Assembly: GCF_001625215.2 (NCBI RefSeq)
Contig: NC_030389.2
Location: forward strand, 33,965,454 to 34,029,453
From: Daucus carota subsp. sativus
Lineage: Eukaryota > Streptophyta > Magnoliopsida > Apiales > Apiaceae
Length of the DNA stretch: 64,000 bases
Reading direction: 5' to 3'
A program made the position numbers and the translations under genes. The notes under the pieces were generated by a model. It did not search any database and was not told where the DNA came from. It saw nothing but the letters and a program-made list of their open reading frames with translations. Positions 1,063 to 37,996 of the stretch are shown one piece after another. Position 1 is the first letter of the stretch; each line of letters starts with the position of its first letter.

Positions 1063-2820
1063 TACCTGAATTAGTTCTTCACTTAATTTTTGTATTTATA
1101 GGAGGATACACACAATGCTCATGATCATCCTGTAACAAAAAGGCCAAACATTAAGCTGCCAACAAAGAAACAGGCACAAGAAAATTATGAGGTACATTAC
1201 ATTCTCTTATTATGAGGTACATTACATTACCACTATGATTTCCATAGTGGTAAAACCCACACATATTCATATTCAAATTTCATATTCTCTAATTTCAAAA
1301 TCTTTAAACTGTGAAGGATCAGCGCGCTGAAGGTGCAAAACATTTACACAGAGCAAAAGACGAATTGAGACTCAGAAATTCACCAAGACTCTTTAGTCAA
1401 ATGGTGTATGATCTCACTGAAGAACAGAAAAACTGGGTGCGAAGCACTGGATTGGGACCTCTTCTTGATTTCTCCTTGGAGATGATTCCTGGGAATTTAG
1501 CATATAATATCTTTCAGATATTTGACCCAAACACCGTTTCCCTCAATCTCAAGAACCAAATAGTATACATCACTGAAGAAGATGTGTATGAGGTCCTCGG
1601 GTTGCCATGTGGAGGTCAGACAATAACACTTGGATCATATGATTACTACCGTGATAGAACTCAGCAGTGGTCATCTCAGTTCGAAACAATAGCAGAAAGT
1701 AATCATGTGACTGTTGCCAAACTTGTTCAGATGATCAAAAAACAAGGCGTCTCTGATAATTTCAAAATTAATTTTTTAATTATGATGTCAAACGTTCTCA
1801 TAGGAACGCCTACGTACTCATACATTGACAGACAACTCCTCAGATTACATGGCAATTTTGATGAGTGTTACAAGTACAACTGGGCAGAGTTCTTGATTGG
1901 TTACCTTGTCAATGCCACTCAAACTTGGAATGAAACTGCATCTACATTTTTTAGGGGTTCATCCATCTTCTTAATGGTAAAAACATCATAAATTATCTCT
2001 CTAAATTTCTTATTCTAACAAATAATAATAATTCTTTCAAATTTATCTTGTAGATGTTTTATGTCGACCGAGTAAGACATAAAGGAATTAAGCTTGTTGA
2101 GAGGCGCTTCCCTTCTTTTAGAGGCTGGACAGAAGATAAGTTGAAAGAAAGACAGGCAATTGATGTATACGGCGGACCTTTTGGATTGGGCTATGTTATG
2201 GTTCCATTAAGGGAGGTGCCATCACAGACTCCAAAACAGGTATATCTGTAGTTATTGTCAGATGTTGTCTGTAGTTATATGCATCATATAATACTTACTT
2301 ACATTTTTCATTTCTCTCTTCAACTTTCAGTATGCAAAAGCAAGTAACCAAAATAAAGAAGCTCCTATGCAAAATCCAGACTGGGATGATTGGAATGCTC
2401 ATCAGAATGATGACGTCCTATGGGAAGAATATGAAAATAGGCATAAACAAACAACTGCAAATGGATGTGAAACATTTAATGAGGTAAATAGTAATTTTAT
2501 ATCTTCCTATTCCTCTGCAATTTCTCATAAATTCAAACTCTGGTCCATACTAATTTGAAGTTTAAATAAAATTAGAACAATGACCCTAAAGATATGCCTG
2601 GTGCTGGTGAACAAGAAGAACCAGATATTGAAGTTGATAAAGAAAATGGTAATCCACAGGCATCAGGAGCAAAGGTATGTATAATCATAGAAAAAAATAA
2701 CAGTGTTTTGTTATATACATAAATTTTATGTACAAAATACATAATTATGTATAACCGGTAAAAAAAATACCTACTAATTACACTTCAAAAACCATGCTTA
2801 GAGCAATATATGAAAAAAAA

Positions 2821-2880
2821 TCACTATAATATATATATAGTAATCACTATAATATATAATATATATATATAGTAATCATT
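2821..2880. repeat. AT microsatellite in intron
   Basis: Imperfect (AT)n with a repeated AGTAATCACTATAATATA motif, in the intron before the 2949 exon. Confidence 0.7.
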
Positions 2881-3716
2881 AATTAGAATATCTACTAATT
2901 ACTAAACTATTATTTGTTAACCACTTTGATTCTGAACTTCTTTAACAGGATGTGGTTGAAAACCTCCGGGAAATGGCTCAAGATTTGATTGAAACAAAGC
3001 TCTTGTTTGACACAGAGCTGAAGTTGGCATTGGAAAAAGAGCCGGCTAATATAGGTCTTCTGGATATCCAACAGCTCATCAATGATTTATTTGGTCAACA
3101 GAAAACAAGTAACATCCCCAGAAACTCCTCGCCAGATACAGTCTTGGAAGATGATTTTAAATTGAGACGAGAAGAAGTCCAACAAATTGATCTTATTCAT
3201 TTTGTCCAATCAGCAAAATCAACTGTCAAGACGACCACCTTATTTGGTGAGGATGACAAAAAGGATGAATACCCATCCTTTTCACTTGGGATAGATGAAG
3301 ACATCAATGGAAATCAGGCAGAACAAGCTGCTATGATAGAAGAAGCTGTTCCGGTAGAAGAAAATGTGCCAATTCCAGCAACTGAAATTACTCCAAAACC
3401 AGCATTAAGAGAGAAGAGTACAAGAGCCTTGAAGATGGGTCGATACGGAAAATCTCCATTTCTTGAAAGAGTGATTGACATCTCTTCAAAAATAACAAAT
3501 CAAGAATTTGGCATTTGGAGATTTATGATTCAAAACAAAAATCCAATGTAAGTTTCTTCTTTCTTATAACTCAAGCTTCAATTTTTATTTTTTATAGTTA
3601 ATTTTTCTCCTGATAATAACTCCAAAAAATTTGACAGTGAACAATTGTTCGTCTTCAATGATTATTATTGCATAAGGGAAGACATGCTAATAACAAAACT
3701 ATACTATAGGCATTGA

Positions 3717-4190
3717 ATTTTATATGGCTTGCATTGCGACAAATATTCCGAATGAGTGACAAATTCTGTCCCAAAAAAAAAATTGAGTGACAACTGAAAT
3801 CAGTATTGAGAATATGTGCTAGAAAGGGTCTAGCTGCCTTAATTTCTCAACAATTAAATGTCACAAAAAGAAAAGAAAAAGGTAGGCATCAGCTTGTTTT
3901 GTTCAAGTATTTTCCCCACTAGTTATCTATCTGCAGCTTTTCTAAGCTACCTTCTAAAATGTCAAAAAATACGTGGGAAACCATGGATATATAACCAGCT
4001 ACTGGAAATCTATATGGTTACATCCAGAATTACAATTATCATGTCAAGAAGCCCAGAAGTGCATTGAATTGGAAACTAAACAGTAAAGTGCAGGGTTTGT
4101 TATGTAAACATAATATAGGCATTGGATTCAAATCAAATACAATCTGACCAAAAAGCACTCTAAATCATTATAATTAATCAACAAAATTTG
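3717..4190. other. Gap between two convergent broken transposon genes
   Basis: No coding sequence recognised. An 11-bp direct repeat TATAGGCATTG occurs at 3705-3715 and 4114-4124, which could be a target-site duplication, but no terminal inverted repeat is visible. Neither the missing Ulp1 domain nor the missing transposase C-terminal part is found here. Confidence 0.5.
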
Positions 4191-6001
4191 ACTTACTTAT
4201 TTGTATCGAACGTTGCATCAAATGAAACCGCATCCCCATACACCTCGAAATTCCTCCGACAAATTGCATCAGCCCAAAAAAGCTTCGTCAAATGCCCTGT
4301 CTCATCAAGCTCATATGCATAATAGAAAGAACTCGACCCCTCTTGCAACACTTTAAACTTTTCAATTAACATTTGTCCATCTCCTTCTCCAATGTAGCAT
4401 TTCAAGTCCCGATTAAAGTTCCTAAAATCTCTCACTGTAGCTCCAACATTAGAATACCCACCAACCATTTCTTTCATCAAACCGTAAGCTTTACTACAGC
4501 CAATGTTAACTTTTGCAGCATCAAACACAAAATTCCTCGAACTTATAGTCATTTGACGACTAGATCGCAAAAATTGTCTTCCAGATTCATCAACCAAGGG
4601 GTGATTATGCACCTCATCAAACTTAAACACAAAATATTCTCTATCCTTATTAAGTTTTAATACTATCTTTGCTTTGCAACAACACCTAATAGAAGCAGTC
4701 CGCCTTCGCTTAACTTTACTCAAATTACTATCCAAAGTACTACGAAAATCATTACACCCTTCTTTACTGCATGTATAATGTTTAATACTAACTATACCAG
4801 ATTCATCCCTCTTTTCAGTTCCCTTCCTCACATCAAAACCACCTAAACGACCATACTCCTTGTAAAATATGAAACCTTGGTCCAAACTCTGAAAGCATTG
4901 ATTAATAGTTGGCTTCGAAACGTCGGGAACATTCAAAGGAATATACGTCTTTTGAGCAGCAGATGAAATAGAATGACTTGTACCAGATTCTTCATTGCAG
5001 TTTGAAGATAAAATAGAACCACCAACAGAAGTCACATCATCAACTCCACGATTAACAACAGATGAATCCCCATAACTTGAACCTATTACACATGATAAAT
5101 AATCAGTAATGACAATAGATAATCACAACCAAAACTAATTATTTATCACATAATCACATATAATTATAATAGTTATCACTAATCACAACAATAAACTCAC
5201 TTTTAATCATGCTCTTAAGTTATATTAAGTATTAAGTATTAACAATAATCGTATCCTCCAAGTCTATACCCCTTGTGATACCACAGAGCTCCTGGTTTTA
5301 TATATTTTACTCAAGAGCAACCACTAGCAAGATTGACATATATTAACTCAGGAGCTACCACTCCTATTAGTCACAATAGGCCAGAATCACCTTAATTTTG
5401 CTCAAGTAACATTTGCCTCATAATAAATATAACTTATGGCGAAGCAATGTAGTAGTATCAGCTGATGATAGACCGGAAATTATGTTATGTTGCACAGACA
5501 CACTAGAAAAGTTAAGCATATAGTAAAGTATCATTACAATTGCAAACATCCAATTCCAAATTAAGAGTATAGCCAGCATCAAGACTATCAGCAACCAAAT
5601 TAAGAGTATATATGTCCTGCTGCATCAACATGAGTACCACGACTCCAGGAGGCAGTAGTAACATTTAAACTTGAATCATGAGAAGTGATGTAATAGAAGC
5701 TCATTTATAATTTATGGACGAGGAAACACAGAACTAGAGCAAAGATCATTGTATGCAAAGCAGGTCAGAGAACAGAAAAATGATTTAGTTCCAGAGCAAA
5801 ATATCAAATTTCTCTCAATATATACCAACTCTACAAGAAACTAACATCAAGACTGAATCAAACAACAATAATCACAATAAACTAACATCGATAATCACAA
5901 ACAGTTGCAATAATTACATTAACTACCTCACTACAAATCAAAGTAATCAACTAATATTTACCTTGATTGTGACTAATCTTCGCTAAGTCTGAAGTAATCA
6001 T
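4191..6001 (-). pseudogene. FAR1/FHY3-type Mutator-like transposase gene, truncated
   Basis: Exon 1 is 6001-5962 (start ATG 6001-5999) and exon 2 is 5082-4197. The junction is phase 1 (CAAG|GTAAAT donor, TAATAG acceptor). The product begins MITSDLAKISHNQGSSYGDS. It has the FAR1 DNA-binding zinc-finger domain (GFDVRKGTEK, YTCSKEGCNDF, then RCCCKAKI and VHNHPL, giving the Cys and His ligands) and the start of the MULE transposase core (LFWADAICRRNFEVYGDAVSFDATF, with the first catalytic Asp). At DTN the coding sequence runs into a perfect donor GTAAGT at 4196-4191, but no following exon with the other catalytic residues is visible downstream. About 300 residues remain of the 650-800 usual for the family. 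It converges with the Ulp1-type gene, as the two genes of Mutator elements often do. It could be a domesticated FRS gene fragment rather than a transposase; the break argues against function. Confidence 0.7.
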
Positions 6002-10634: not shown

Positions 10635-13037
10635 ATGGAAATACAAAAACATATGAGTTTACTTCTACTTGTATATGCTACATGTTTAACATTTTGTTGC
10701 GGTAGCATAGTCGGAGGCCCCCTGAATGGAAGCTGCATTCACAGCGAGAAACAAGCTTTGCTGCTTCTTAGGAAAAGCCTTCTTGTTGTAAACGACTCTT
10801 GGTTACCGTGGGATGGAGATGATTGTTGTTCATGGGACGGTATTTATTGCAACAGCATAACAGGCCAGGTCATCGAACTTGATCTCGAAATGTGTTGTCA
10901 CGAAGGTCATTAGAATATCAGATATCTTGTTTCTAAATTATAAAATTTTCTTTTTCAATTATTTCATATAAGATTTCATTAAATATTATTGTATTTATAA
11001 AATCAAGCATGATTAACCGGAAGTTGAAGACGTTTTTTGTTGGTTTTTTTGGCCTTGCAAAGTAATTTAATATTTGTCCCAATGCAGTAGTACTCATTTT
11101 CTCAGTTTACTGAATGACCAAACTATTTTAATTAATTATTTCCAGGTTCGATATCTCAATCCATCGGGAACTTGACTGCTCTTACTCGAGTATATCTATC
11201 TGGTAATTCCATTGAAGGCATTATACCAGAATCCATAGGAGCTTTAAAATCTCTTACTTATCTTGATCTTTCTTCCAATAATCTCGGTGGTTTCTTTCCT
11301 CAATCTTTCAGAAATTTGACATCTCTCAATTGCCTTAATCTTGATTACAACATATTTACTGATTCAATTCCGGTTGAGATTGGCAATCTTACCAAACTTT
11401 CAGACCTCAGGTTGAGTAAGAATTGGTTTAGTGGTTGTCTACCAGAATCACTTTGCCAACTAAGGGATTTAATCGGACTGGTGGTTGATGATAATCAACT
11501 GGGAGGAAGCATTCCTAAATGCATCGGAAAACTATCAAATCTATATTTTTTGGATCTTGATTCCAATTCATGGGACGGTATTATATCTGAGCATCACTTT
11601 GTCAACCTCACCAAGCTTCATTCATTTCGAATTTCTTCAAACTCCAACTTCATGGTTAATATCAGTTCTAGATGGGTTCCTCCATTTCAGCTTCATGATA
11701 TATACATGGACTCCATAAAAGTGCCCCAGTTTCCCAAATGGCTTATAACACAGAGAACACTTGTTGACATCACAATGACAAACACGAGCATATCAGACAC
11801 CACGTTAGCAATTCCAAATAGTGTGACTCATTTAGACCTCTCAAATAACCACTTGTTTGGTAATATCCCTGCTCTTTTATGCAATAATACGTCCTTGAGG
11901 ACTATGCTTCTCTCTGATAATAAATTTTCAGGAGCGCTGCCCCCGTGCCTAGGAAATTTGACAGGCTTGAATGATTTTTCCATTATGAATAACAACCTCA
12001 GTGGAGATATTCCTATTTCTTTAGGTTCTTTAAGGTTTCTCAGGTATTTAAACTTGCACAATAATAATTTTCAAGGCAAACTTCCACTGTCCTTCCAAAA
12101 TTTGTCATCTATAATCGGACTTGATGTGGGAAAGAACAATTTAAGCGATATCCTTCCTCGTTGGACTTCGAAGTTGCTGGATCTCAGGTATTTAATACTA
12201 CGGTCCAACAATTTCTACGGTGAAATTCCCACGGATATTTGTCATCCATCAATTCAAGTTCTAAACCTGGCAAAAAATGACATAACGGGAAATATTCCTC
12301 TTTGCTTCGGCAATTTTACTGCCATAATTACAGGTTATAACAGCGGAAAAGAAGAAGGTCCATCATACTCAAGTCTGAGTTATGAAGATATCATTATGGA
12401 TGATCCAAAAGGATATGAAGTAACATATTCCTCTACACTCGATTTTCTTTATTCCATTGATTTATCAAATAACAACATCAGTGGCGAGATTCCAGAGGAG
12501 TTGATGAACCTCCATGGTTTGTTGAGTTTAAACATAGCTGGTAACCGACTATCCGGAAGGATCCCTGACACGATAGGGAAATTGGATTTACTGGAATTTC
12601 TTGATCTGTCCAGAAATGAACTTGATGGTCATATTCCACAGAGTCTGTCAAATCTGAGCTTTTTAAGCGGTTTAAACCTCTCCTTTAATGATTTTTCGGG
12701 GAGAATACCAACGGGAAACCAACTCCGAACCCTAGATGATCCTTCCATTTATGTTGGAAACAATCAGCTCTGTGGTCCATCCATCCTGAAGCCATGTCCT
12801 GGTGACACCGATTCACATGATTTTCACAACAACAATGAAGCTGAATTTTATTCGGATGACGAGCACGTGTGGTTTTATGCAGGGATAGGACCTGGTCTCT
12901 TGGTTGGCTTTCTGGGATTCTGCGCTTCTTTGCATTTCATTCCAACATGGAGGTACTTCTACTTTCACTCTGTTGAAAGATTCTCTGACAAGATAGCGCT
13001 TTCCATTGCTTTGTGGCGGAGAAGGTTCCAGAACTAA
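10635..13037 (+). CDS. RLP1: LRR receptor-like protein, intact
   Basis: Exon 1 is 10635-10905 and exon 2 is 11146-13037 (phase-1 intron, acceptor TTTCCAG); together 720 residues. Residues 1 to about 25 are a signal peptide (MEIQKHMSLLLLVYATCLTF), then the LRR N-terminal cap with EKQALLLLRKSL and the CC...C pattern of DDCCSWDGIYC. Exon 2 gives an array of 24-residue plant LRRs (LxxLxxLxLxxNxxxGxIP), an island with KGYEVTYSSTLDFLYSIDLS, four last LRRs, NQLCGPSILKPCPGD, an acidic stretch, one membrane helix with GxxxG (AGIGPGLLVGFLGFCASLHF) and a tail of about 30 residues. No kinase. By family knowledge (Cf, EIX, Ve type) it would sit in the plasma membrane and signal through a partner kinase such as SOBIR1. 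It is about two LRRs shorter than RLP4 and RLP7. A 3'-UTR intron starting at 13041 is likely. It is the only plus-strand RLP. Confidence 0.88.
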
Positions 13038-13379
13038 GAGGTGAACTCCTATCTATTACACACACTTTTGTTATTTTCTCTTCTCCTCTGTTCTTGTACT
13101 TGTTAGACTACTAAATATGAGTTGACATTATTTCTAATTTTTTAGTGGATTCAGGTTCTTCATCAAGCTGTAGCCTTGGACAAGAAAGATGTTGGGATTT
13201 CTTGCATCATATGACTCCATCTTTACCAATATATATACTTTCATGTTCCTATATTCTCTGTTTCTGCTTCTTGTATTCTCTTCTGTACCTTGTTATTGTA
13301 CGTTCCTGGTCATTTTAACAATAATACTGCTAAAGTTTATCTTGGTTGAGAATGGAACATGCTGTTAGTCTTAACTAAA

Positions 13380-13773
13380 GGATGATATATACAGTTAAGG
13401 GTCCGGAGGTCCTTGACAAGCGATTGATGCTACCATCTTTGAGTGGTTCTTTATCGTTGCAAGGCTTCTAACCTTTAAATTTTTTATGTGAATACAGGGG
13501 CTATGTCACCCTACCAGCACTTTATCATCTATTAAATGTTGCTTTATCAATCAATTAGAGTTTATTAATTAATAATATGAAATTTATATTCGAATCAATT
13601 TAAGGGAAACGAATTCAGATCACATCGGCTAAGATCAAGAACGAATGGATCGAAGATCAGGTCTGACTACTTAAAAAAACTTGGCTCAGTTTAACGGCCT
13701 ACACAATACTGAAAGTATATAATGCATGCAAATGCTAACACAAAAACAATGTCTGAACTTTAAACACCAGAGA
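13380..13773. repeat. RLP 3'-flank duplication, copy 1
   Basis: About 390 bp (GATATATACAGTTAAGGGTC to AACTTTAAACACCAG) that recur at 24222-24613 in the same orientation. Both copies lie just downstream of the 3' end of a minus-strand RLP (RLP2 and RLP3), so they are remains of one ancestral gene unit. Confidence 0.75.
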
Positions 13774-14179: not shown

Positions 14180-14229
14180 TTAGTTCTGGAGCTTTCTGCG
14201 CAACAAAGAAACATCAACCGCTATCTTGT

Positions 14230-14568
14230 TGAAAACATTTAAAAGTTTAAGACACTTTCATTGAGAACTCTCTTTTCTCATTCCTTTCATCTCAAACTGA
14301 AGTTCAGATCTACTTCTATTACATATAGAGCATGCTGCTAACTTAGGACCACATGTCCTTTTCAGCCAGAACTAGCAGGAGACAAAATAGCAAAACAGCC
14401 GACATAAACAAAAGGACAGACAGACTATCAAACGGCTATCAAACTGGGATCTTGTGCACTACCTTGACTACACAATAATGACTCCTAACATATTATACTA
14501 GACTGGACTTTTACTAGGCAGCAAGCATAGAAGATATATTATATAGAATAACTACTTGGGCTCCAATA
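14230..14568 (-). repeat. 3' LTR of the copia element
   Basis: 339 bp. Read on the minus strand it starts TATTGGAGCCCAAG and ends TTTTCA. It starts TA where TG is canonical; the other LTR has the same change, so the parent element already had it. Confidence 0.93.
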
Positions 14569-14579
14569 CTCCCCCTCAA
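14569..14579 (-). promoter_or_regulatory. Polypurine tract
   Basis: The minus strand reads TTGAGGGGGAG directly before the 3' LTR start TATTGGAG, the expected plus-strand primer site for reverse transcription. Confidence 0.8.
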
Positions 14580-15769
14580 GCTGAGTGTGATGGAACATGA
14601 ACGCCAAGCTTGTCGAGCAGAATTTTATGCTGTCCTACAGTGAGGATTTTGGTAAAGACATCAGCCACTTGCTCGGATGTAGGGATATATGTAGGAGAAA
14701 TTTGATCACTCACTGCTTTCTCTCGAATAAAATTGCAATCAATCTCCACATGCTTTGTCTTCTCATGATGGACTGGGTTGGCAGAAATTGCTAGAGCTGC
14801 TTTGTTGTCACAGAAAATAGGAGTAGAACCCAGGTGAGTGAGGCCGAGATCCTTCAGCAATTGTTTCACCCACAAAACTTCACAAACTGTCATAGCTAAT
14901 GACCTGTATTCTGCCTCAGCCGTTGACCGAGCCACAACTGATTGTTTTTTAGACTTCCATGCTATAGGAGAATTGCCCAAGATAAGGCAGAAACCAGATG
15001 TTGATCGTCTGGTATTAGGGCAACCAGCCCAATCACTATCACAGTATGCTTGGAGTTCAGCTGCTGAGTTAGAAGCAAGTAATATGCCTTGATCCTTTGA
15101 GCCAGATAAATACCTCAGTACCCTCTTAGCAGCTTGAAAATGAACAGAGGTAGGTGAGTGCATGAACTGACTAAGAACATGAACTGTAAAAGCAATGTCA
15201 GGTCTAGTGATTGTAAGATAGATTAATTTACCTATCAACTTTTGATAATTCTCAGGGTGAGGAAGTAACTCTCCTGCAGTTGAGAGAAGCTTCACATGAG
15301 TGTCCATGGGAAGTTTTAATGGTTTGCAGCCAGACATTTTATACTCCTCAAGAATGTCTGTAATGTATTTCTTCTGAGATAGGAAAATCCCCTTTTCACT
15401 CCTGTCTACCTCAATGCCCAAGAAGTATCTGAGCTCCCCCAGATCTGTCATTTTAAATTGAGAGTTAAGGAATTTCTTTGTGTCATTGACAGCCTCCATA
15501 TTGTTGCCAGTAATTAGAAGATCATCAACATAAGCAAGGACTGCAGTGAAAGAATTAGTACCTTGCTTAGTAAACAGAGTAGAATCAGCTTTAGATTGAG
15601 AGAATCCATACTCTATAAGGGCTTTGCTTAGCTTATCAAACCACAACCGGGGTGATTGCTTGAGACCATATAGGGTCTTAAGCAACCTGCATACTTTGGT
15701 CTGTAGATTATGATTTTTTTTCATGCTCCCCCTGTGCTGCAGTGTTAAATCTGAAGCCTTTACCCTCAT
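14576..15769 (-). CDS. Copia pol, downstream frame: RT C-terminal half and RNase H
   Basis: Frame B of pol. It picks up at [20 protein letters not shown], contains the RT active site [10 protein letters not shown], then RNase H ([31 protein letters not shown]) and ends in the usual copia C terminus [13 protein letters not shown] ... HVPSHSA, stop at 14576. The residues before about 15715 in this frame are out-of-frame noise. It would be joined to the upstream frame but for one extra A in the A8 run at 15714-15721. Confidence 0.9.
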
Positions 15770-18700
15770 ATCCTGGAGGGAACTTCATATACACAATGTC
15801 TTCAAGCTCTCCATGTAGGAAAGCGTTCTTCACATCCATCTGGTGAGTAATCCAGCCTTTAAGGGAAGCCACAGCAAGCAAAGATCTCACTGTAGTGAGT
15901 TTAGCCACAGGTGCAAAAGTTTGGTCATAGTCAATCCCATACTTCTGTCTATTCCCAAGAACCACCAATCTTGATTTGTATCTCATACTGTTCCTTTGAG
16001 GGTCATACTTAGTTGTGTATATCCATTTGCAACCGATAGCTATTTTCCCTGGTGGCAAGTCAGTTATCTCCCAAGTTTGATTGGTTTCAAGGGCATCCAA
16101 TTCCTCATTCATAGCTTGTAACCAGTGACTGTGCTGAGCAGCTTCTGTAAAATTTTTAGGGTCTGGTGTTTTTGTTACTTTGTTCATAAAGCAACTAAAC
16201 TGAGGGCTCACTTCTGTGTCAGTGCATTTTTTAACACAGTTAGCACTTACTTGATAATCATCATGCCAAGCTGGTGCTCTGTGATTTCTATTTGATCTCC
16301 TTACAGGTGGAGAGGGAACAGCTTCACTTGCTTGTTGTTCTTCTTGTTCCTCTATGTTAGTTGCAGTGACTGTGTGGTTATCCATCTCACTTTCAACCCA
16401 TACAGACTGATCAGCTCTTTCTTCAGTCCCATTTTCTTCTGCCTCCTTGCTTGTTTGAAATACTTGGTAAGGATATATAGTTTCATAAAACCTCACATCT
16501 CTTGATACAAATGTCACACCAGTGAGTAAATTATGCACCCTGTAGCCCTTCTGTGAGGGTGAGTACCCAATAAACACACAGGGTACTCCCCTTGGTTGAA
16601 ACTTATCCTTACTCCTGGAAGGGTTGTAAGCAAATGCCAGGCATCCAAATGATCTCAGATGGCCATATTCTGCAGGTTTATTATATAAAAGCTCATAGGG
16701 AGTCTTCCCTTTTAGCACACCAGTAGGCAATCTGTTAGTGATGTGTGTAGCAGCCAATACACAATCACCCCAAAAATGAAGAGGTAAGGATGCTTGAAAC
16801 CTCAGAGCTCTGGCCATCTCCAGGATATTTCTATGCTTTCTCTCTGCCCTTCCATTCTGCTGAGGACGATCAACACAAGATGTTTGGTGTAAAATACCAA
16901 ATTTCTCAAAGAAAGCTTTACATCTGTAATCATCAAACTCCAAAGCATTATCTGATCTGATGACTTTAACAGTCTTTTTGAACTGATTCATAGCCATCTT
17001 CACAAAGCTCTTTATTGCCCTTATTGCATCAGATTTTAGAACAAGCAGATGAACCCATGTAACCCTTGAAAAATCATCTACAAATGTCAGGAAATACCTA
17101 AATCTTCCCCTGTAACTTACTTTGTAGGGTCCCCATGTGTCAATATGGACTAGCTCAAATAACTCACTTGCTCTTGATTCACTCTGATTAAAGGGAAGTT
17201 TTGTGAACTTGGCTAAGGGACAAGCAAGGCAGACATCTTGGCTCTCATTCTTAATATCAATTTTCTGGATCAATTTTATTCTCTTCATTGGGGCATGCCC
17301 TAATCTCTGGTGCCACAGAGTTTCTTTGCTGATCTTAGGAACATTTGTTATTACAGTTGGGATCCTGTCTTTAACATTCACAGACATGGCCACCTTACTA
17401 CTCATATGACATCTAGATTTCTTAGTCACATTCAAGGTTTGAGCAGTAAGATCCTTTAAAATTTTCTTCATTGGCTCATTAATTAAGTAATACAATCCAT
17501 TTTCACCCTTGCCTATGCCCCTGACCTCATTAGTGTTCTTATCTTGGATGATACAGTAGTTTTCATGAAATACTACACTGCACTTCTCATCATGACACAA
17601 TTTGTTCACAGACAACAAGTTATGCTTAAATGCAGGGATACATAGCACATTTTTAAGCTGTATACCATTTTTCAGTTCTACATTTCCACTATGTGTTATC
17701 TGAGAGGTCTCTCCAGTTGGCAAGTTGATTCTATGATTATTCTGACATACTTCCAGGTTTTTTAATACACTAATCATGCCAGTCATATGATCAGATGCAC
17801 CTGAATCTATAATCCATTCATCATTTTTCACAGAATCAACAAAATAGCATGAGACCATACCTACATAATGACCATCTATTTCATCATCTGTATCTCCTCC
17901 TTTAGAGCCATTTGGTATTAGCCTTAACAGCTGTTCCAGCTGCTGTGTTGTTATTCCAGTGCTGCTACTTGTGACAGATCTATTATCAGGGTAGACCTGA
18001 CCTTGGACATTAGCTGCAACTCTGGTTCCATTGCCTTGTCTCCCTTTGTTCCACCTCTGTTGGTTAAAACTGTTGTTTCCCCTTCCTTTTGTTCTCTGAG
18101 GGGGTTGGTTAATTGGCTTTGCTTTTGCATGCCAAGCTGGATATCCAACCACAGTCCAACACTTCTCTGTATTATGCCCACTCTTTCCACAAGCACCACA
18201 TTGAACAGTGGAGGTTAATTGAACATTTGGTGCAGCTACTGGACCTCCTTTGCTGAACATTGCCAAGCCATCTGGTTCTTCTTTGCTTTGACCAAGTACT
18301 TCCCTCTGAGCTTCTTCTTGTTCCAGATAACTGCAAGCTATCTCAACAGATGGTAGAACAGCCATCATGAGCAGTTGACTTCTCTGAGCTCCATAAATGT
18401 CATCAAGACCATTTAAAAATTGGAACAGTTTTTGTTCCTCTTTTTGTTGATTTAGAGCTGTAAGAAGATTTGCCACTTCTTCATTCACCAATTTAATTTC
18501 TGGGAGAGAGGTGAGGGACTCCAGTTCTTCCCACAATGCTCTCATTAGAGTATAATACTCACTAACAGCCTTGCCTTGCTGTTTAGTTTCATACAACTCT
18601 CTGTTGATTTTGTATTTTCTGGAGCCATTTGTGAGAGCAAATCTTTGCTCAAGCAGCTTCCAGATCTGATATGCACTGTTTACAAACATAATGGATTTCT

Positions 18701-18971
18701 TGATGGACTCAGAAACTGATCCCAAGATCCATGATATAATCATGTTATTACATGTATCCCAAGCTTCACTCTTGACTGTATCACTCACATCTTTAGTCAA
18801 GGTGCCATTTACAAATCCCAGTTTTCTTTTTGAAGAAAGAGCAATCTCCATTGATCTTTTCCAAGACCTGTAATTAGCAGAACCCTGGAGTTTTTCTATG
18901 ACCATAAAATTATTCCCATCAGAGGGATGCAAATACAGAGGGCTTGACACATCTATTGATGTGGTAGACAT
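15708..18971 (-). CDS. Copia gag-protease-integrase-RT (upstream frame)
   Basis: Start ATG at 18971 ([20 protein letters not shown]), 1,087 residues. The gag domain is N-terminal. The CCHC zinc knuckle [14 protein letters not shown] is at about residue 260. The aspartic protease [13 protein letters not shown] is at about 385. The integrase zinc region LWHQRLGHA is at about 550, then the integrase core ([44 protein letters not shown]) and the RT N-terminal half ([60 protein letters not shown]). It then leaves frame at GEHEKKS in the A8 run (15714-15721). Except for this frameshift, I see no stop codon in gag-pol. It could be a real inactivating indel, a sequencing error, or a programmed shift, the last being unlikely because copia elements usually use a single frame. 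Confidence 0.93.
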
Positions 18972-19015
18972 CTTTCCTATGTAACTGTTTGAAACCTATA
19001 CTAATGAGCAACCTC

Positions 19016-19027
19016 GCTCTGATACCA
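19016..19027 (-). promoter_or_regulatory. Primer binding site (tRNA-iMet type)
   Basis: The minus strand reads TGGTATCAGAGC immediately after the 5' LTR end TTTTCA, complementary to the 3' end of initiator tRNA-Met. Confidence 0.9.
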
Positions 19028-19367
19028 TGAAAACATTTAAAAGTTTAAGACACTTTCATTGAGAACTCTCTTTTCTCATTCCTTTCATCTCAAACTGAAG
19101 TTCAGATCTACTTCTATTACATATAGAGCATGCTGCTAACTTAGGACCACATGTCCTTTTCAGCCAGAACTAGCAGGAGACAAAATAGCAAAACAGCCGA
19201 CATAAACAAAAGGACAGACAGACTATCAAACGGCTATCAAACTGGGATCTTGTGCACTACCTTGACTACACAATAATGACTCCTAACATATTATACTAGA
19301 CTGGACTTTTACTTAGGCAGCAAGCATAGAAGATATATTATATAGAATAACTACTTGGGCTCCAATA
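19028..19367 (-). repeat. 5' LTR of the copia element
   Basis: 340 bp, identical to the 3' LTR except one extra T (ACTTAGGC here, ACTAGGC there). Its outer end provides the false C terminus of RLP2. Confidence 0.93.
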
Positions 19368-21761
19368 CTTGTCAAAGACTTTTTCCACAGATTGGAAATA
19401 TAAATACCTCCAGGACTTGATAAAATGTAAAGAACCGCAGAATCCCAAAAAGCCAACCAAGAGACCAGGTCCTATTCCAGCATAAAACCACAATCGCTCA
19501 GTATCTGACTCAGGTTCATTATAATCGTGAACATTATTTGGTTCTGTTTCATCTTCACATGGCTGCAATACAGGTCGACCACAGAGATGCCTGTTGCCAG
19601 CATAGATGGAGGGATCATTTAAGGTTTGGAGTTGGTTTCCCGTCGGTATTCTCCCTGATAAGTCATTGAAAGAGAGATTCAAGTGGCTTAAAGAATTTAT
19701 ATCCGATAGACTCTGTGGAATTGAACCATGAAGTCTATTTTCAGAGAGATCAAGAGATTCCAGATTATTCAAATTTCCAATCTTGTTAGGAATCCTTCCA
19801 ACTAGCTGATTACATGCTAAATTCAAATTAGTTAACTGATGAAGATCCATCAACTCCCGCGGAACCTCTCCACTGATGTTATTATATGATAGATCAAAAG
19901 AAATCAAATAATCGAGCGTAGAGGTGTAATTTAACTCATATCCTTTTGGATCATCTATTATCGCTTCACCATCCCTCAATGATGAGTGGGGTTCATATGG
20001 ATCATAAAAGTAATCACTTGCCGCAATCATGGCAGTAAAATTGCCAAAACAAGGAGGAATATTTCCTGTGATTTGATTCCGTGCCAAGTTCAAAACTTGA
20101 ATTGATGGGAGGCTGCAAAGCTGCGTAGGAATTGTACCGTAAAAATTGTTGGATCTGAGTATTAAGTACTTAAGATTAGGTAATTGTTCTCCTGTCCAAC
20201 GGGGAAGAGTATCGCTAAAATTATTCCTTCCCACATCAAGTGTCTCGAGATCTTTCAAATCCTGGAAGGACAAAGGGAGTTTCCCTTGAAATTTGTTGTT
20301 ATGCAAGTTTAAATAAATGAGATTTCCTAGAGAACCGAAAGACGCAGGAAGTACTCCTGAGAGATTGTTATTCATCACATCAAAATCCCGCAGTTCCAGT
20401 AAGTTCCCTAAGCACAGGGGGAGCTCTCCTGAGAAGTTATTGTTGGAGAAGAGTAATGAAGTCAAGGACGTTATATTGCATAGAACTGAAGGAAAATCAC
20501 CTGACAAGCGGTTATTTGAAAGTGCCAAACGTTGCAAACCACTTGGAGCTGCTAAAATCAATGACATTTCCCCGTTGATGTCATTGTTTGATAAATCAAC
20601 ATCCTCCACGCTAGACATGAAGAGCAAACTCGCAAACCAGTCAGCTAATATGCTTTCTGAAATGCCTGTATCTTGCAACGTAATAATATGAATCCGTCTC
20701 TGTGTTAACAGCCAGCGAGGAAATCTTGGCCCCACTTCAAGGACTCCAAATAAATCCTTCCTAGTTGAAACGGAGGAACCCAATCAGAACTTATATTCCA
20801 AATTAAGTTGGACTTTGAAGATATTTCCAAGACAGCCAGCCTCGCAAGGTTAAGAAAGTGATGCTCTGATAAAAAACCCTCCCATGAATTAGAATAAAGA
20901 CTCAATGATTCTATATTTGATAATTGTCCAATGCATTTGGGAATGTCTCCGGTCAGTTTATTGTCACTGACGTCTAAGTGTTGCAACTTAAACAGTTGGC
21001 AGAAAGATTCTGATAAACAACCCCCAAATTCGTTTGAGCTTATATCAAGGTATGTAAGCTCGGAGAGATTTCTGATCTCTGCTGGAATTTCACCACTTAA
21101 ATTATTGCTAAAAACATCGAGTACAGAAAGTGATGTCAAATTTCCAATAGATTGTGGAATTAAACCTCGAAAACTATTAAAATATAACACAAGCACAGTG
21201 AGAGATTTTAAATTTCCAATAGTCAGGAATGTAACCATGAAAGTAATTGTATGAAAGATCAAGTTCAGAAAGAGCAGTTAAATTTTTGATAGATTCAAAA
21301 ATCAAACCATGGAATTGATTGACGGAAAGATCAAGTTTAGAAAGTGACGACAAATTTCCAATAGACTGAGGAATTGAACCATTAAAATTATTCTCACGAA
21401 TATCAAGTATTGAAAGTGATGCTAAATTTCCAATAGATTCAGGAATCAAACCATCAAAACCACTTCCCCAAAGAATAAGTCTAGAAAGTGCTGTCAAATT
21501 TCCGATAGATTGAGGAATTGGACCGGAAAAATAATTGGCATGAAGATCAAGAACAGTAAGAGATGTCAAAGCCCCTATAGAATCTGGAATCTGGCCTCGC
21601 AAACCATTGTAGGAAAGATAAAGTTCAGAGAGGTAAGTCAAATTTCCGATTGATGGAGCAATCACACCTGACAATTACACAGGATAGATGGGAATGAGGA
21701 ATTAGTCCACTGCACTTGATAGTTAGGCCAAACTTTCTGTTCAGGTCGATGGTAATAATAA

Positions 21762-21965
21762 TACTCTCTCCGTCCCTCTCATTTCTTTACAGTTTTTTAT
21801 ACTGCTCGACACGCATTTTAATTCGCATATAAATCATAATTCTATGATATTCGGAAGAAAAAAATGTTCAAAATTATTTATCAAACTACGTTTTATGAGA
21901 GCATTAGAATGCGTGCCGAGCCCCTCGTCCCCCAATATAAACAAATGAGGGGGACGGAGTGAGTA
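21762..21965. mobile_element. Stowaway-type MITE
   Basis: It starts TACTCTCTCCGTCCCTCTCA and ends with the inverse GAGGGGGACGGAGTGAGTA, with TA at both ends. It lies in the RLP2 intron, between exon 2 (from 21667) and exon 1 (to 22263). Confidence 0.85.
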
Positions 21966-22521
21966 AAGCTTAGCGAACATTCTCTGCAGAAAGGACTGGA
22001 ATGAATTACTATACCAGTTGCCTCTTAGTTCAATGGTATAACCTTTCTTTATGTTTCACAAGGTCAAGGTCAAGGCCATCCAACAAATAATAAGTCATCT
22101 ATTTCTGAAAAAAAATATGAAAAATATGCGCTTTTTTCCTGAAAATAAGTATTTATTTCTACGGATAATGAATGTTAAACGCTTTCTAAATACTTAATTC
22201 CGAAACACTTTAACCACAGCCTTTAACCTTGTAATAATAAAACACTGAAATCACATTATCACCTGATAAACCACAGCCTTGGAGATCAAGTTTGATGACA
22301 TGTCCGGTTATGTTGTTGCAACCAATTCCTTGCCATGAACAACAATCATCTCCAATCCATGAAGGCAAGCCATTCCGATCTTCGACAAAACTTTTCTTAA
22401 GGAGCAATAAGGCTTGTTTCTCGCTCTGTATACAGTTTCCGACTCTGCTTCCACAAACAAATTCTAGACTAGCCAGAAAAACTAATGCAGATACTAGTAT
22501 AAACTTCATGGGTCTTTTCAT

Positions 22522-24221: not shown

Positions 24222-24613
24222 AATGATATATACAGTTGAGAGTCCGGAGGTCCTTGACAACGACTGATGCAACCATCAATTAAATGGTTCTTTATCGTTG
24301 TAAGGCTTCTAACCTTTAAATTTTTTATGCGAATACAAGGGCTATGTCACCCTGCCCACACTTTATCATCTATTTAATATTGCTTATCAATCAAGTTGAG
24401 TTTTATTCATAAATAATATGAAATTTATATTCGAATCAATTTAAGTGAAACGAATTCACATCACATCGGCCAAGATCAAGCATGAATGGATCCAAGATAA
24501 CTACTAAAAAAAACAAACTTGGCTCAGTTTAACGGCCTACACAATACTAAACAATTATATAATGCATGGAAATGCTAACACAAAAACAATGTCTGAACTT
24601 TAAACACCAGAAC
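24222..24613. repeat. RLP 3'-flank duplication, copy 2
   Basis: Matches 13380-13773 over its length (shared TCCGGAGGTCCTTGACAA, CTTGGCTCAGTTTAACGGCC). Between 24614 and 25022 I see only the 3' flank of RLP3. Confidence 0.75.
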
Positions 24614-25022
24614 TTTGAATTACAAACTCTAAAATATTTTTAGAAGTTTAAACACAAACATCAAACTGAAGTTTATTGAAATAACGATAATAATAACTTT
24701 GTGACTAAACTCCAAATGTGCATCACAGCAAAGATGCTTCTGCAAAGACTGGAATGGAACCTCGAGCAATTGGGACTGAGCACCAACATATAGATTTGCA
24801 CCATCTTCTGTTGAAACAAATTATAAATTATTTTAGTAAGCATACTATAAAAACCTGATGTTGATGACAGAATGGTTAAGGTTTATGTAGAAATAGTTCA
24901 AATGTGTTATGCGTTAATGCATATTACATTTGAACTATCATGAAAGCAAACGGATAAAAATATATCTGTTTAGTTCAAGATGACATTTTGACAAGGTTTT
25001 ACAGTAAAACAGAGTTTACCTG

Positions 25023-28000
25023 TTAGTTAAGGAATCTTCTCCACAACAAAATCATGGAAACTGCAATCTTGTCAAACGCTTGTTCGACATAATGAAAGTA
25101 AAAATACCTCCAAGACTTGATAAAATGCAAAGAAGCGCAGAATCCCAAAAAGCCAACCAAGAGACCAGGTCCTATCCCAGCTTTAAACCACATGCGCTCT
25201 TCATCTGAATCAGTATCAGATCCGTTGTGGTCATGGAATTTATTTGATTCTGTGTCGCCAATACAGGGTTTCAGGATAGGTTCCCCACAGAGCTGATTGT
25301 TGCCAGCATAGATAGAGGGATCAATGACTCCAAGGGTCTGGAGTTGGCTTCCAGTTGGTATTTTCCCTGATAAATCATTGAAGGAGAGGTTCAAGCGGCT
25401 TAAAAAAATTAAATCCGCTAGACTTTGTGGAATAGGACCACTAAATTTGTTCCTTGAAAGATCAAGAAATTCCAGTTTTTCCAGTTTAATTTCCAATTCT
25501 GTCTGGGATCCTTCCAGTTAGATGATTCCCTGCTAAATTCAAATTTAATAAGCTATAGAGTCCCATCAACTGTTCTGGAATCTCTCCACTGATATTGTTA
25601 TTTGATATATCAATGGAAAACATAAAACGCAGTGTAGATGTAAATTTCAGCTCATATCCTTTTGCATCATCTGATATCGCTTCACCATTCCCCAGCCCGA
25701 AGTCAAAATAGTCATCATTGTTTTCACCAGTAATCATGGCACTGAAATTACTGAAACATGGAGGAATGGTTCCTGTAATTTGATTTCGTGCCAAGTTTAA
25801 AACTTTGATGTATGAATTGTTGCAAAGCTGTACAGGAATATCACCATAAAAATAGTTGGACCGCAGAATCAAATACTCAAGATCAGGTAATTTTTCTGCG
25901 GTCCAAGGAGGTATGGTATCGCTCAAATTGTTATTTCCCACATCAAGCGCGACAATAAATGTCAAATTTTGAAAGGACAGAGGGAGTTTTCCTTGAAACT
26001 TGTTGTTGTGCAAGTTTAAGTAAAGGAGCAACTGTAGAGAACCCAAAGAAGAAGGAATATCCCCAGAGAGACTATTACTCATCACATCAAGTTCTTTCAA
26101 ATTTTTTAAGTTTCCTAAACAGCGGGGGAGTGGTCCTGAAAAGTTATTGCTGGAGAGAACTAAAACAGTCAAATATTTTAGACTGCATAAAAATTGAGGT
26201 ATATCACCCGACAAACTGTTATTGGATAGTGCCAAGACAGACAAACCATGTGTTCGAGCTGCTGAAACTAATGAGAGTTGTTTCCCGTTGAGGTCGTTGT
26301 CAGATATATCAACAGTAGAGGCCTGAGATAAGAGTACATTCACAAACCAATCTGCTGGGATGATATCTGATATGCTCGTATTTGCCATTGTAATGTCACT
26401 TATTTGTCTCTGTGTTTGGAGCCAATGGGGAAATTTAGGCCCAACTTTCAAGGACTTCATGTATAAATATTGAAGCTGAAATGGAGGAATCCACTTGCAA
26501 CTAATATTCAACACTAAGTTAGATTCCGAAGATATTTCCAAGGTGGTCAGCCTCGTGAGGTTGACAAAATGATGCTCAGATACAAAACCCTCCCACAAAT
26601 TAGACAAAAGACTCAAATCTGTTAAATTTGATAGCTGGCCGATGCATTTAGGAATGGAAGTCAGTTGATTATCGCTGGCATCCAACGCTGTCAACTCTAA
26701 CGACTGACAAAATGTTTGTGGCAGAGAACCCCTAAATGCATTTGAGCTTATACTGAGGTATTGAAGTTCCGTAAAATTTCCCATCTCGAGTGGAAAGTCA
26801 CTTAGTTTATTATTTGAAAGAAGAAGTATAGAAAGTGACGTCAAATTTCTAATAGACCGGGGAATTATACCCTGCAACTTATTGTCACTAAGATCAAGAT
26901 AAGTAAGAGATGTCAAAGTTCCAAGAGATTCTGGGATCAAACCGTACAAAGAATTGGATGAAAGCTTTAGCTCAAGAACTGATGTCAAATTTCCAAGAGA
27001 CCGAGGAATATTACCCTGCAAATGATTGCTTGAAAGATCAAGAATAGTTAGAGATCTCATTGTCCCTATAGATTCGGGGATCAAACCTTGAAAACTAGGG
27101 CCAGATAGATCAAGTTCAGATAGGGAAGTCAAACTTCCAATCGATTTAGGAATCAAACCTTCTAAGCTATTTCTAAGTAGACCAAGATTGATTAAAGATG
27201 TCAAACTTCCGATAGAGTGAGGAATTGGGCCTATAAAATCGTTGTCTGAGAGATCAAGTTCAAGAAGAGATGTTAAACTTCCTATAGATTGAGGAAGTAG
27301 ACCACTGAAAAAATTAAACCGAAGATTTAGATGTGCAAGACCACTATTGTTAAGAACCCATAAAGGGAAAGAAGAGTTAAGTTGGTTGGAACTAAGATCC
27401 AGAAAAACAAGAGATGTTAAATTCAGAACGGGGAGATGATGAGGCATTTTGTTGGGTAGGAAAGAATCGTGCAAACGTAGTACTAATATTGAATTGGGAA
27501 GCATGTTAATGGCCGGAAACCAATCAGTGGCCCTGGAAAGATTCATATCAGAGAGATCCAAGTGTTCCAACAAAGAAAGCCTAGAAAACCACCCCATGCT
27601 ATCGATGCTTAATAGGAAATTACCATTTAAATCAAGGTACTTTAAGCTCGAAAGGTTCCCTAATTGATGAGGAACTAAACCTATAAAGTTGGAGTGAGAG
27701 AGGTTGAGATATGTTAGATCCTTAAAGGACCCCAAGAATTTTGGAATTCGTATCCCATGAAAACTGTTGTTGCTCAGGTCCAAGTAAGTCAAATATCTCA
27801 AATTACGCAAGGAATGGTTTATGTGGCCACCTCTTAAATAACCACTTTGCAGATCAAGTTTCATGACATGGCCGGTCTGTTTGTTGCAGCCAATTCCATG
27901 CCATGCACAACAATCATCTCCAACCCATGACGACAAGTAGTTTGTGTCGTCAGAGAGACTTTCTTTAAAGCTTAGCAAAGCTTGTTTGTCCCTCTCGTTG

Positions 28001-28107
28001 CAGCTCTGATTCCAATTGCTTCCAACTCTGCTCCCGCAATTCAACTTTACCAGAAAACCTATTGCATAAGCAAGAATTAGTAAACTCATACGTTTCTGCA
28101 TTCCCAT
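25023..28107 (-). pseudogene. RLP3: long-form LRR receptor-like protein with one frameshift
   Basis: The start is placed at ATG 28107 (MGMQKRMSLLILAYAIGFLV) because the leader aligns there with the other RLPs; an upstream in-frame ATG is at 28116. No intron: LDLQSGYLRGGHINHSLRNL runs straight through the site where six relatives have one. The N-terminal cap has ERDKQALLSFKESL and DDCCAWHGIGC, then about 30 LRRs, the island (KGYELKFTSTLRFMFSIDIS), membrane helix AGIGPGLLVGFLGFCASLHF and tail ending LLWRRFLN. Total about 1,020 residues, the normal size for Cf/EIX/HcrVf-type RLPs. After GRIPDRIG the frame hits TAA; a 4-nt insertion (TTAA-like) at about 25486-25492 separates it from EKLEFLDLSRN in the next frame. 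Without the last LRRs and the helix the product would be secreted or lost. Sequence error is possible. Confidence 0.85.
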
Positions 28108-28234
28108 AGCTAGCATTCGCCAGTAAATATCAAAGAGACTTATTTGCCAGTTCTATATTTATGAACATTAATAATTTGATTGAGTGTCTGTAGCTGGTAT
28201 AAATATGAGCAGGTACATAAATTAAAGTGATTCA

Positions 28235-30120: not shown

Positions 30121-30655
30121 GTAATGTCATAGCCAGTAAAGCTCAGTACTATGAAAGAATATTTATCAAGAGAAGAAAGCTATTCACATGTTCAAAAATT
30201 AAGTAGAATAATGTCATCCATATAATGGAACTCCATGGAACTTTTGCATTTGCGTTAATGCCATTCTTTACCAAGATAAAATTCAGCAGTATTATTGTTA
30301 AAATGACTAGCAATAACAACGTATAATAACAAGGTGCAGAAGAGAATACAAGAAGCAGAAACAGAACATAGGAACTTGGAAGTATGTATATTTTACGTAA
30401 ATTATGTATAATATAACTGGATATATATTGCTAAAGATGGAGTCATGATGCAAGAAATTCCAACATCTTTTTGTCCAAGGCTACAGCTTATGCTTGATGA
30501 AGAACCTGAATCCACTAAAAAATTAGGAATAGTGTCAACGCATATTTAGAGGTCTAACAAATACGAGAACTCAGCTGTAGAAGGCAAAACCATTAAGAAA
30601 AACAGAGGAGAAGAAAAAATAACAAAAGTGTGTGTAATGGATATGATTTCACCTA

Positions 30656-33219
30656 TTAGTTCTGGAACCTTCTCCGCCACAAAGCAATGGAAAGCGCTAT
30701 CTTGTCAGAGAATCTTTCAACAGAGTGAAAGTAGAAGTACCTCCATGTTGGAATGAAATGCAGAGAAGCACAGAATCCCAGAAAGCCGACCAAGAGACCA
30801 GGTCCTATCCCTGCATAAAACCACACGTGCTCGTCATCCGAATAAAATTCAACTTCATTGTTGTTGTGAAAATCATGTGAATCGGTGTCACCAGGACAGG
30901 GCTTTAGGATGGGTGGACCACAGAGCTGATTGTTTCCAACATAAATGGAGGGATCGTCTAGGGTTCTGAGTTGGTTTCCCGTTGGTATTCTCCCCGAAAA
31001 ATCATTAAAGGAGAGGTTTAAATGGCTTAAAAAGCTCAGATTTGACAGACTCTGTGGAATATGACCAGCAAGTTCATTTCTGGACAGATCAAGAAATTCC
31101 AGTTTATCCAATTTCCCAATCGTGTCAGGGATCCTTCCGGATAGACGGTTACCAGCTATGTTTAAACTCAACAAACCATGGAGGTTCATCAACTCCTTTG
31201 GAATCTCCCCACTGATATTGTTATTTGATAAATCAATGGAATAAAGAAAATCAAGTGTAGAGGAATATGTTAGTTCATATCCTTTTGGATCATCAATGAT
31301 TATATCTTCATAACTCAGTCCCCCGTATATTGGACCTTCTTCTTTTCCGCTGTTATAACTTGTAATTATGGCAGTAAAATTGCCGAAGCAAGGAGGTATG
31401 TTTCCCGTTATGTCATTTTTTGCCAGGTTTAGAACTTGAATTGATGGATGACATATATCGGTGGGAATTTTACCGTAAAAATTGTTGGACCGTAGTATCA
31501 AATACCTGAGATCCAGCAACTTCGAAGTCCAACCAGGAAGAATATCGCTTAAATTGTTCTTTCCCACATCAAGTCCGATTATAGATGACAAATTTTGGAA
31601 GGACAGTGGAAGTTTGCCTTGAAAATTATTATTGTGCAAGTTTAAATACCAAAGAAACCTTAGAAAACCTAAAGAAATCGGAATATCCCCACCGAGGTTG
31701 TTATTCATAACAGAAAAGTCATTCAAGTCTGTCAAATTTCCTAGGCACGGGGGTAGCGCTCCTGAAAATTTATTATCAGAGAGGAGCATAGTACTCAAGG
31801 ACGTTAGATTGCATAAAAGAGCAGGGATATTACCAAACATGTGGTTATTTGAGAGGTCTAAATATCTCACACTATTTGGAATTGCTAATATGGTATCTGA
31901 TATGCTCGTGTTTCTCATCCTGATGTCAGCAAGTGATCTCTGTGTTATAAGCCATTTGGGAAATTTGGGCACTTTTATGGAGTCCATGTATATATCATTA
32001 AGCTGCTGAAATGGAGGAACCCATCTAGAACTGATATTAACCATTAAGTTAGATTTTGAAGAAATTCGAAAGGAATAAAGGTTGGTGAGGTTGACAAAGT
32101 GATGCTCAGATATAATACCGTCCCATGAATTGGAAGCCAGATCCATGATTACTAGATTTGATAGTTTTCCGATGCATTTAGGAATGCTTCCTCCCAGCTG
32201 ATTATCATCAACCAACAGTGCACTTAAATTGTTTAGTTGACAAAGTGATTCTGGTAGAGAACCACTAAACCGATTCCCACTCACAGTGAGGTCTGAAAGT
32301 TTGGTAAGATTGCCAATCTCAGCCGGAATTGAACCACTAAATCTGTTGTATTTAAGATAAAGGTCAAAAAGTGATATCAAGTTGCCAATAGACGGAGGAA
32401 TCAGACCATGTAAATAATTTAGAGAAAGATCAAGTCTAGTGAGAGATGTCAAAGCCCCTATAGATTCCGGGATCAAACCTCTAATTTGGTTATTATATAG
32501 GTCAAGAATAATTAGGGATGTCAAATTTCCGATAGATTGAGGAATGAAACCCCCGTGATTATTGAAAGAAAGATCAAGATAAGTAAGAGATTTTAGAGCT
32601 CCTATGGATTCTGGTATAATGCCTTCAATGGAATTATCGGATAGATATACTTGAGTAAGAGCAGTCAAGTTCCCGATGGATTGGGAAATCGAACCTGGAA
32701 TAATCACATAAAATAGTTTGGCCATTCAGTAAACTTAGAGAGTGAGTACCATAATGAGACTGCATTTGGACAAAAATTAGATTACATTACAAGGCCAAAA
32801 AACCAACAGTAAACGTGTTCAACTTGCGGGTTAATCCTGCTTGATTTTATAAATATTATAATAGTATTAATTATTTCTTATTTAAAATAAATGAAACAGA
32901 AATCTTTCTAATTTAAGAAGAAGGTATTTGAGATTTAATCACCTTTATCACAACAATTTTGGAGATCAAGTTTGATGACCTGGCCTGTTATGTTGTTGCA
33001 ATAAACTCCGGACCATGAACAACAATCATCTCCATCCCACGGTGACAACCAAGAGTCGTTGTTTCTAACAAGAAGGCTTTTTCTGAGAAGCAGCAAAGCT
33101 TGTTTCTCGCTGTGAATGCAGCTTCCGTTCTGGTGGCCTCCGTCTATGCTACCGCAACTAAATGTTAAGCTTATAGCATATACAAGTAGAAGTGAACTCA
33201 TATATTTTTGTATTTCCAT
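30656..33219 (-). CDS. RLP4: LRR receptor-like protein, intact
   Basis: Exon 1 is 33219-32943 (MEIQKYMSSLLLVYAISLTF, EKQALLLLRKSL, DDCCSWSGVYC) and exon 2 is 32694-30656; phase-1 intron with acceptor TTATTCCAG; 771 residues. The start is chosen at MEIQKYM because the leader upstream is promoter sequence shared with relatives. The LRR array starts GSISQSIGNLTALTQVYLSD. Then come the island (KGYELTYSSTLDFLYSIDLS), NQLCGPPILKPCPGD, acidic FHNNNEVEFYSDDEHVWFY, membrane helix with GxxxG, and a tail ending IALWRRRFQN. Many N-x-S/T sites fit a glycosylated ectodomain. Nearly identical to RLP7 and close to RLP1. The 3' flank has a probable 3'-UTR intron as in RLP1. Ligand unknown. Confidence 0.9.
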
Positions 33220-37623: not shown

Positions 37624-37996
37624 AACTTATTTGCAGAAATAAGTGTACTAATTATGATCTTGATTATATATAAAAGAAAGTATAGGAATAACACGCGACA
37701 TGGCACCACTGAGTTGACAGGTTGACAACGACAACAAAGAATCAGATCAGACAGAACATAAGGAACAAATGACAAGTAAATAAAACAGAAAATATTAACA
37801 TACAAAAATGCATCTGAATTGAAATTTGTAGTACAACTCGAAATACAGAATTTGAGAAATCCACCTTCCTCCAAGCTATATGCGAATAACATCAGCACAT
37901 TAATACATTATAGCGTTTTACAACTTTGAGAAACTCACTCAAGAAAACAAAGAAAAAATTGACAAGCAGAAATGCATGGCATTTATGTTTAGACAT
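37624..37996. other. 3' flank of RLP5
   Basis: No gene. The sequence (CAAATCCACCTTCCTCCAAG-like, CATTTATGTTTAGACATTTA) recurs before the stop codon of RLP6 and at the end of block B. Confidence 0.6.

What the first reader, a model, noticed from the sequence alone, without database searches (positions are those of the whole stretch)
14180..19400. A recent copia insertion splits an RLP gene and strands its last 16 codons 5 kb away
The RLP2 frame runs into LTR sequence at VEKVFDK, and the expected tail code continues on the other side of the element after the CTTGT target duplication. The LTRs differ by one indel only, so the insertion is very young and may be polymorphic in the species.
Basis: partly seen in the sequence, partly recalled or inferred. 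Interest (0 to 1): 0.7.

Follow-up and report, generated by a model that had tools for sequence, protein, structure and literature searches.

The report
Young Copia insertion in RLP pseudogene
A recently arrived jumping gene (a Copia-type retrotransposon) sits inside the last codons of a plant immune-receptor-like gene that is already broken in two other places in this assembly; such insertions are ordinary in plants, though this one has unusual ends and no parent copy was found elsewhere in the assembly.

Summary
A 5,138-bp Copia element (14230-19367, minus strand, same orientation as the gene) has LTRs differing by one indel and no substitution, and is flanked by CTTGT. The joined flanks read ...VEKVFDK|IAVDVSLLRRKLQN-stop and align across the junction with six other places in the window that lack the insertion. 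The LTR replaces the last 14 codons with YWSPSSYSI-stop.

Added here: (1) RLP2 has two further frame breaks in its LRR exon (near 21218 and 20737), so in this assembly it cannot encode a full receptor with or without the insertion. Which damage came first is unknown. (2) The LTR ends are TA..CA, as in tomato TARE1; relatives at about 74-76% identity in the same genome have TG..CA. (3) Searches of the 441-Mb genome (lower bounds) found one other family copy, truncated and about 95% identical, and no solo LTR or parent. Changes on this element's lineage are mostly at third codon positions (5/5/34), unlike the dead copy's (25/27/20), so its parent line stayed functional until recently. The element's own pol frame is broken.

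Polymorphism and RNA effects could not be tested. This is a new member of a known kind.

The parts
14230..14568 (-). 3' LTR of the Copia element (339 bp), ends TA..CA on the element strand
19028..19367 (-). 5' LTR (340 bp); supplies the codons YWSPSSYSI-stop to the interrupted RLP frame
14225..14229 (.). target-site duplication CTTGT, copy 1
19368..19372 (.). target-site duplication CTTGT, copy 2
19016..19027 (-). primer-binding site next to the 5' LTR (TGGTATCAGAGC on the element strand; the initiator tRNA-Met match is recalled)
14569..14580 (-). polypurine tract next to the 3' LTR
15708..18971 (-). gag to first half of RT, open frame of 1087 aa
   Evidence: Retrotran_gag_3, Pol_BBD, rve, SH3_retrovirus, RVT_2 positions 1-106; gag_pre-integrs just below its cut-off
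14576..15769 (-). second half of RT and downstream part (RNase H by position, recalled), 397 aa, in another frame: the pol frame of this copy is broken in the RT region
   Evidence: RVT_2 positions 105-242
14180..14224 (-). stranded last 14 codons plus stop of RLP2 (IAVDVSLLRRKLQN)
19373..20783 (-). RLP2 exon 2, third segment: LRRs, transmembrane stretch, start of cytoplasmic tail (the ORF runs 20783-19338)
20705..21262 (-). RLP2 exon 2, second segment in another frame; frame break to the third segment near 20737
21177..21667 (-). RLP2 exon 2, first segment; frame break near 21218 leads to a stop at 21177
21668..22262 (-). RLP2 intron (GT donor at 22262, AG acceptor before 21667; inferred from paralogues, no RNA), containing a dispersed MITE-like repeat at about 21762-21965
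22263..22521 (-). RLP2 exon 1: signal-peptide-like start and LRRNT_2 domain

Best explanation
A low-copy Copia LTR retrotransposon of a TA..CA-ended family integrated recently, in sense orientation, into the last codons of a receptor-like-protein gene in a tandem RLP cluster, duplicating CTTGT. Shown: boundaries, TSD, near-identical LTRs, in-frame joining of the flanks as in paralogues, and two other frame breaks in the same RLP as assembled. Inferred: a transcript of RLP2 would read into the 5' LTR, gain nine LTR-coded residues and a stop, and probably end at LTR signals; RLP2 is a recently dying pseudogene and the insertion is one of at least three lesions whose order is unknown. The element came from a source lineage that was still functional, but no such source was found in this assembly, so it was probably lost or lies on another haplotype.
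For: (LTR pair, TSD, joined and chimeric reading). (joined flanks align through the junction with copies at 12591-13053, 25018-25478, 30650-31111, 37996-38432, 41910-42365 and 53823-54284). (two frame breaks in exon 2). (segment after the second break, 416-420 codons: dN/dS 0.25-0.35 against the four paralogues compared; the six paralogue pairs give 0.29-0.34; so constraint until recently). (LTR, gag half and 3' pol part against the own genome: one other same-family copy, on C1). (the C1 copy is truncated, carries an insertion, and shows no 3' LTR). (polarised differences at codon positions 1/2/3: this element 5/5/34, C1 copy 25/27/20; Fisher p = 3e-7 for third versus other positions).
Against: The two RLP2 frame breaks, the single LTR indel and the pol frame break are all small indels, so some could be assembly errors; if those in RLP2 were, the insertion would be its only lesion. 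No RNA, reads or second accession were available. Genome-search counts are lower bounds. The outgroup for polarising changes is only about 74-76% identical. The closest neighbouring RLP (25023-28116) was left out of the dN/dS comparison.
Confidence: 0.75

Rival explanations
1. RLP2 was an intact working receptor until the Copia insertion; the other frame breaks are consensus errors of the assembly.
For: The other lesions are small indels. dN/dS is not raised. Apart from the two breaks, the stretches that match the neighbouring RLP are open.
Against: Two related elements in the same assembly show uninterrupted 1475-aa frames, and their LTR pairs have no gaps (2 mismatches in 360, 0 in 359), so indel errors are not rampant. 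Other RLP copies in the cluster also look broken (25486/25496; about 37996-39579).
Confidence: 0.2
2. RLP2 with the LTR-coded tail is expressed as a functional shortened receptor, using the LTR as a terminator.
For: Same orientation of gene and element; the transmembrane stretch is retained; a stop occurs nine codons into the LTR.
Against: As assembled, translation ends at 21177, before the transmembrane stretch. No RNA data.
Confidence: 0.03
3. The LTRs look identical because of gene conversion, and the insertion is old.
For: Identity of LTRs alone cannot exclude conversion.
Against: The TSD is perfect, the codon-position pattern shows constraint on the source line, and the only other same-family LTR found is 92% identical.
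Confidence: 0.05

Closest known systems
TARE1 of tomato (Copia, Ale lineage; PMC3701649: abstract, outline, sections 6 and 16 read)
   Same: LTRs begin TA and end CA; its authors propose origin by a G-to-A change at the second base of the 3' LTR of a TG..CA ancestor. Here too TG..CA relatives at about 74-76% identity exist in the same genome.
   Different: TARE1 has 354 copies and 194-bp LTRs; here one complete and one truncated copy were found, and LTRs are 339-340 bp. Lineage and sequence similarity to TARE1 were not tested.
Other non-TGCA LTR families: Tos17 (TG..GA), AcCOPIA1 (TG..TA), pear TGTT and AACA subfamilies (PMC5659011: abstract fragments and passages seen)
   Same: Non-canonical LTR ends
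   Different: Different dinucleotides and hosts
LRR receptor-like proteins (RLPs); with the neighbouring RLP (25486-28116) as query the best solved structures are the receptor kinase GSO1 (6s6q) and 7drb, 'Membrane-localized LRR receptor-like protein' (that 7drb is RXEG1 is recalled)
   Same: LRRNT_2, long LRR array, transmembrane stretch, short tail without kinase
   Different: RLP2 is broken at three places in this assembly

Membership tests
Copia LTR retrotransposon | Direct LTRs with target-site duplication of about 5 bp | tested here: met
Copia LTR retrotransposon | Copia-type gag, integrase before reverse transcriptase, RVT_2 | tested here: met
Copia LTR retrotransposon | PBS next to the 5' LTR and PPT next to the 3' LTR | tested here: met
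   by reading; identity of the tRNA recalled
Canonical TG..CA LTR-RT | LTRs start TG and end CA | tested here: not met
   TA..CA; in the C1 copy the similarity stops at the same TA end
TARE1 | TA..CA LTR ends | tested here: met
   PMC3701649 abstract and section 16
TARE1 | 194-bp LTR, high copy number | tested here: not met
   339/340 bp; two copies found
TARE1 / Ale lineage | Phylogenetic placement of RT | not tested
   no reference set fetched
LRR-RLP | LRR N-terminal domain and LRR array | tested here: met
LRR-RLP | Transmembrane stretch, short cytoplasmic tail, no kinase | tested here: inconclusive
   read by eye in the joined C-terminus and its paralogues; Pfam listed no kinase in the third segment; no TM predictor was run
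Functional RLP gene | Open coding frame from start to stop | tested here: not met
   two frame breaks plus the insertion, if the assembly is right

The most novel reading that the evidence does not exclude
The element belongs to a TA..CA-ended Copia family that lived on in this species through a functional source lineage of very low copy number. The source is absent from the assembled haplotype, either because it segregates or because the element came in recently by introgression or horizontal transfer; the RLP2 insertion would be its only recent trace.
Probability: 0.15. Interest if true: 0.45.

Novelty: new member of a known kind. Interest (0 to 1): 0.22.

Why it matters
It is a clear, datable case of a retrotransposon landing in a plant immune-receptor-like cluster; that such insertions drive gene loss and turnover in these clusters is established knowledge (recalled). 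The insertion is a ready presence/absence marker. The family adds another example of a TA..CA Copia lineage beside TG..CA relatives, here at very low copy number, in contrast to the mass amplification of TARE1.

Tried and rejected
'16 codons stranded' was changed to 14 codons plus stop beyond the TSD. The C1 copy (L026) as parent was rejected: it is truncated, shows no 3' LTR, is about 5-6% diverged, and its own changes are spread evenly over codon positions. A close uninterrupted duplicate of RLP2 to date the frame breaks was sought in the own genome: apart from itself the long matches are 70-75% identical, with 40 of 1583 candidates scored, so the breaks could not be dated that way. Neighbouring DNA (L029) holds a further RLP, matched in one tblastn piece over residues 1-875 of the query, and a 125-base fragment at 84%. 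Paper searches listed no paper whose title or shown start of abstract describes a Copia insertion at the end of an RLP gene; full texts were not read for this.

Full report
Observation. Two direct repeats frame a 5,138-bp element at 14230-19367. The repeats are 339 and 340 bp and differ by one single-base indel, with no substitution in 339 aligned sites. The 5-bp sequence CTTGT stands outside both ends; at this base composition such a match at fixed positions has a chance of about 0.0016. The element lies on the minus strand: PBS-like sequence adjoins the 5' LTR at 19016-19027 and a purine tract adjoins the 3' LTR at 14569. Pfam finds Copia-type gag, integrase core and the two halves of RVT_2 in two overlapping ORFs, 18971-15708 and 15769-14576.

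The gene. The RLP2 frame on the minus strand reads YFQSVEKVFDK and then, in LTR sequence, YWSPSSYSI and stop. Beyond the other LTR, 14224-14180 reads IAVDVSLLRRKLQN and stop. With the element left out and one CTTGT kept, the two sides form one open C-terminus. The joined flanks align through the junction in single HSPs (1 to 4 gap openings) with six other places in the window, at 71-77% identity, which are paralogues without an insertion there.

RLP2 has an exon 1 (22521-22263, LRRNT_2), an intron with a dispersed MITE-like repeat and a long LRR exon. That exon is open only in three pieces, 21674-21177, 21262-20705 and 20783-19338, in frames 2, 1, 2. The homology to the neighbouring RLP passes from one piece to the next near 21218 and near 20737. 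Translation would stop at 21177, before the transmembrane stretch. RLP2 is therefore a pseudogene in this assembly apart from the insertion. For the last piece, dN/dS against the four paralogues compared (B53, C41, D30, E11) is 0.25-0.35, close to the 0.29-0.34 of the six pairs among them, so loss of constraint is recent or absent. The closest neighbour (25023-28116, itself frame-broken) was not in that comparison. Whether the breaks came before or after the insertion cannot be told: the long relatives found in the genome are only 70-75% identical, with 40 of 1583 candidates scored. Assembly error is a live alternative for small indels, though the LTR pairs of two related elements show no gap and their 1475-aa frames are open.

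Age. With no substitution in 339 sites the 95% upper bound is 0.34-0.68 My for rates of 1.3e-8 to 6.5e-9 per site per year (rates recalled). Polymorphism was not testable.

The family. On the element strand the LTRs begin TA and end CA. In the only other same-family copy found, on C1, the similarity stops at the same TA end of its 5' LTR. Two relatives at about 74-76% identity (L027, L028) begin TG and end CA, with LTR pairs 99.4% and 100% identical. This parallels tomato TARE1, for which the authors propose a G-to-A change in the 3' LTR of a TG..CA ancestor (PMC3701649, abstract, outline and sections 6 and 16 read). PMC5659011 passages name TARE1, Tos17 and AcCOPIA1 as non-TGCA elements.

Copy number and source. 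The LTR search of the own genome (441 Mb, 11 contigs) gave 5 matches: the two LTRs here, one on C1 at 92%, and two 44-base pieces in the LTRs of L027. It did not list the similar 44-base pieces that one search shows in L028, so weak matches are missed. The gag-half search gave 44 matches: this copy, C1 at 95%, five long matches at 70-74%, and 37 shorter or weaker ones. The 3' pol search gave 41 matches (40 of 68 candidates scored): this copy, C1 in two pieces (95% and 97%), six at 72-76%, and 32 at most 70%. Counts are lower bounds by the tool's own warning. The C1 copy is 3'-truncated, has an insertion of about 0.47 kb, and shows no second LTR in the 1.9 kb beyond. No solo LTR or parent copy was found.

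Which copy changed. Of 218 differences between the two copies over 4,481 aligned sites, with L028 as outgroup, 105 are derived on C1, 64 on this copy, 47 match neither, and 2 lie at outgroup gaps. In the first ORF the changes at codon positions 1/2/3 are 25/27/20 for C1, 5/5/34 for this copy and 10/3/23 unassigned; Fisher p = 3e-7 for third versus other positions. The line leading to this element was thus under purifying selection, that is, kept functional, after the split from the C1 copy. The outgroup is distant, so single assignments are uncertain, but such bias should act on both copies alike. The present copy's own pol frame is broken in the RT region.

Reading. Ordinary retrotransposition into a decaying member of an RLP cluster is the best account. 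The missing source copy is the one odd point; a segregating or lost source is the plain explanation, introgression or horizontal transfer the bold one, and neither could be tested here.

Noticed in passing
21762-21965: A MITE-like repeat with CTCCGTCCC/GGGACGGAG ends sits in the RLP2 intron; pieces of it match several other contigs at up to 95% identity.
   Followed up: partly
25023-28116: The neighbouring RLP also has a frame break (ORFs 28116-25486 and 25496-25023), and another RLP at about 37996-39579 is in pieces.
   Followed up: partly
13630-13771 and 24472-24611: An 88% identical stretch (144 aligned columns) lies downstream of both RLP2 and the neighbouring RLP, a sign of tandem duplication.
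   Followed up: partly
30656-32725 and 53829-55895: Two RLP copies are nearly identical (dS 0.037 over the last 459 codons compared), a recent duplication within the cluster.
   Followed up: no
L028 (G000:C1:45711500-45721400): A related TG..CA Copia element with identical 359-bp LTRs: another recent insertion, of a sister family.
   Followed up: partly
1311-5035 and 48612-49307: ORFs with matches to DUF1985 and plant mobile domain (both below Pfam's cut-off), FAR1 and zf-BED, perhaps remains of DNA transposons.
   Followed up: no
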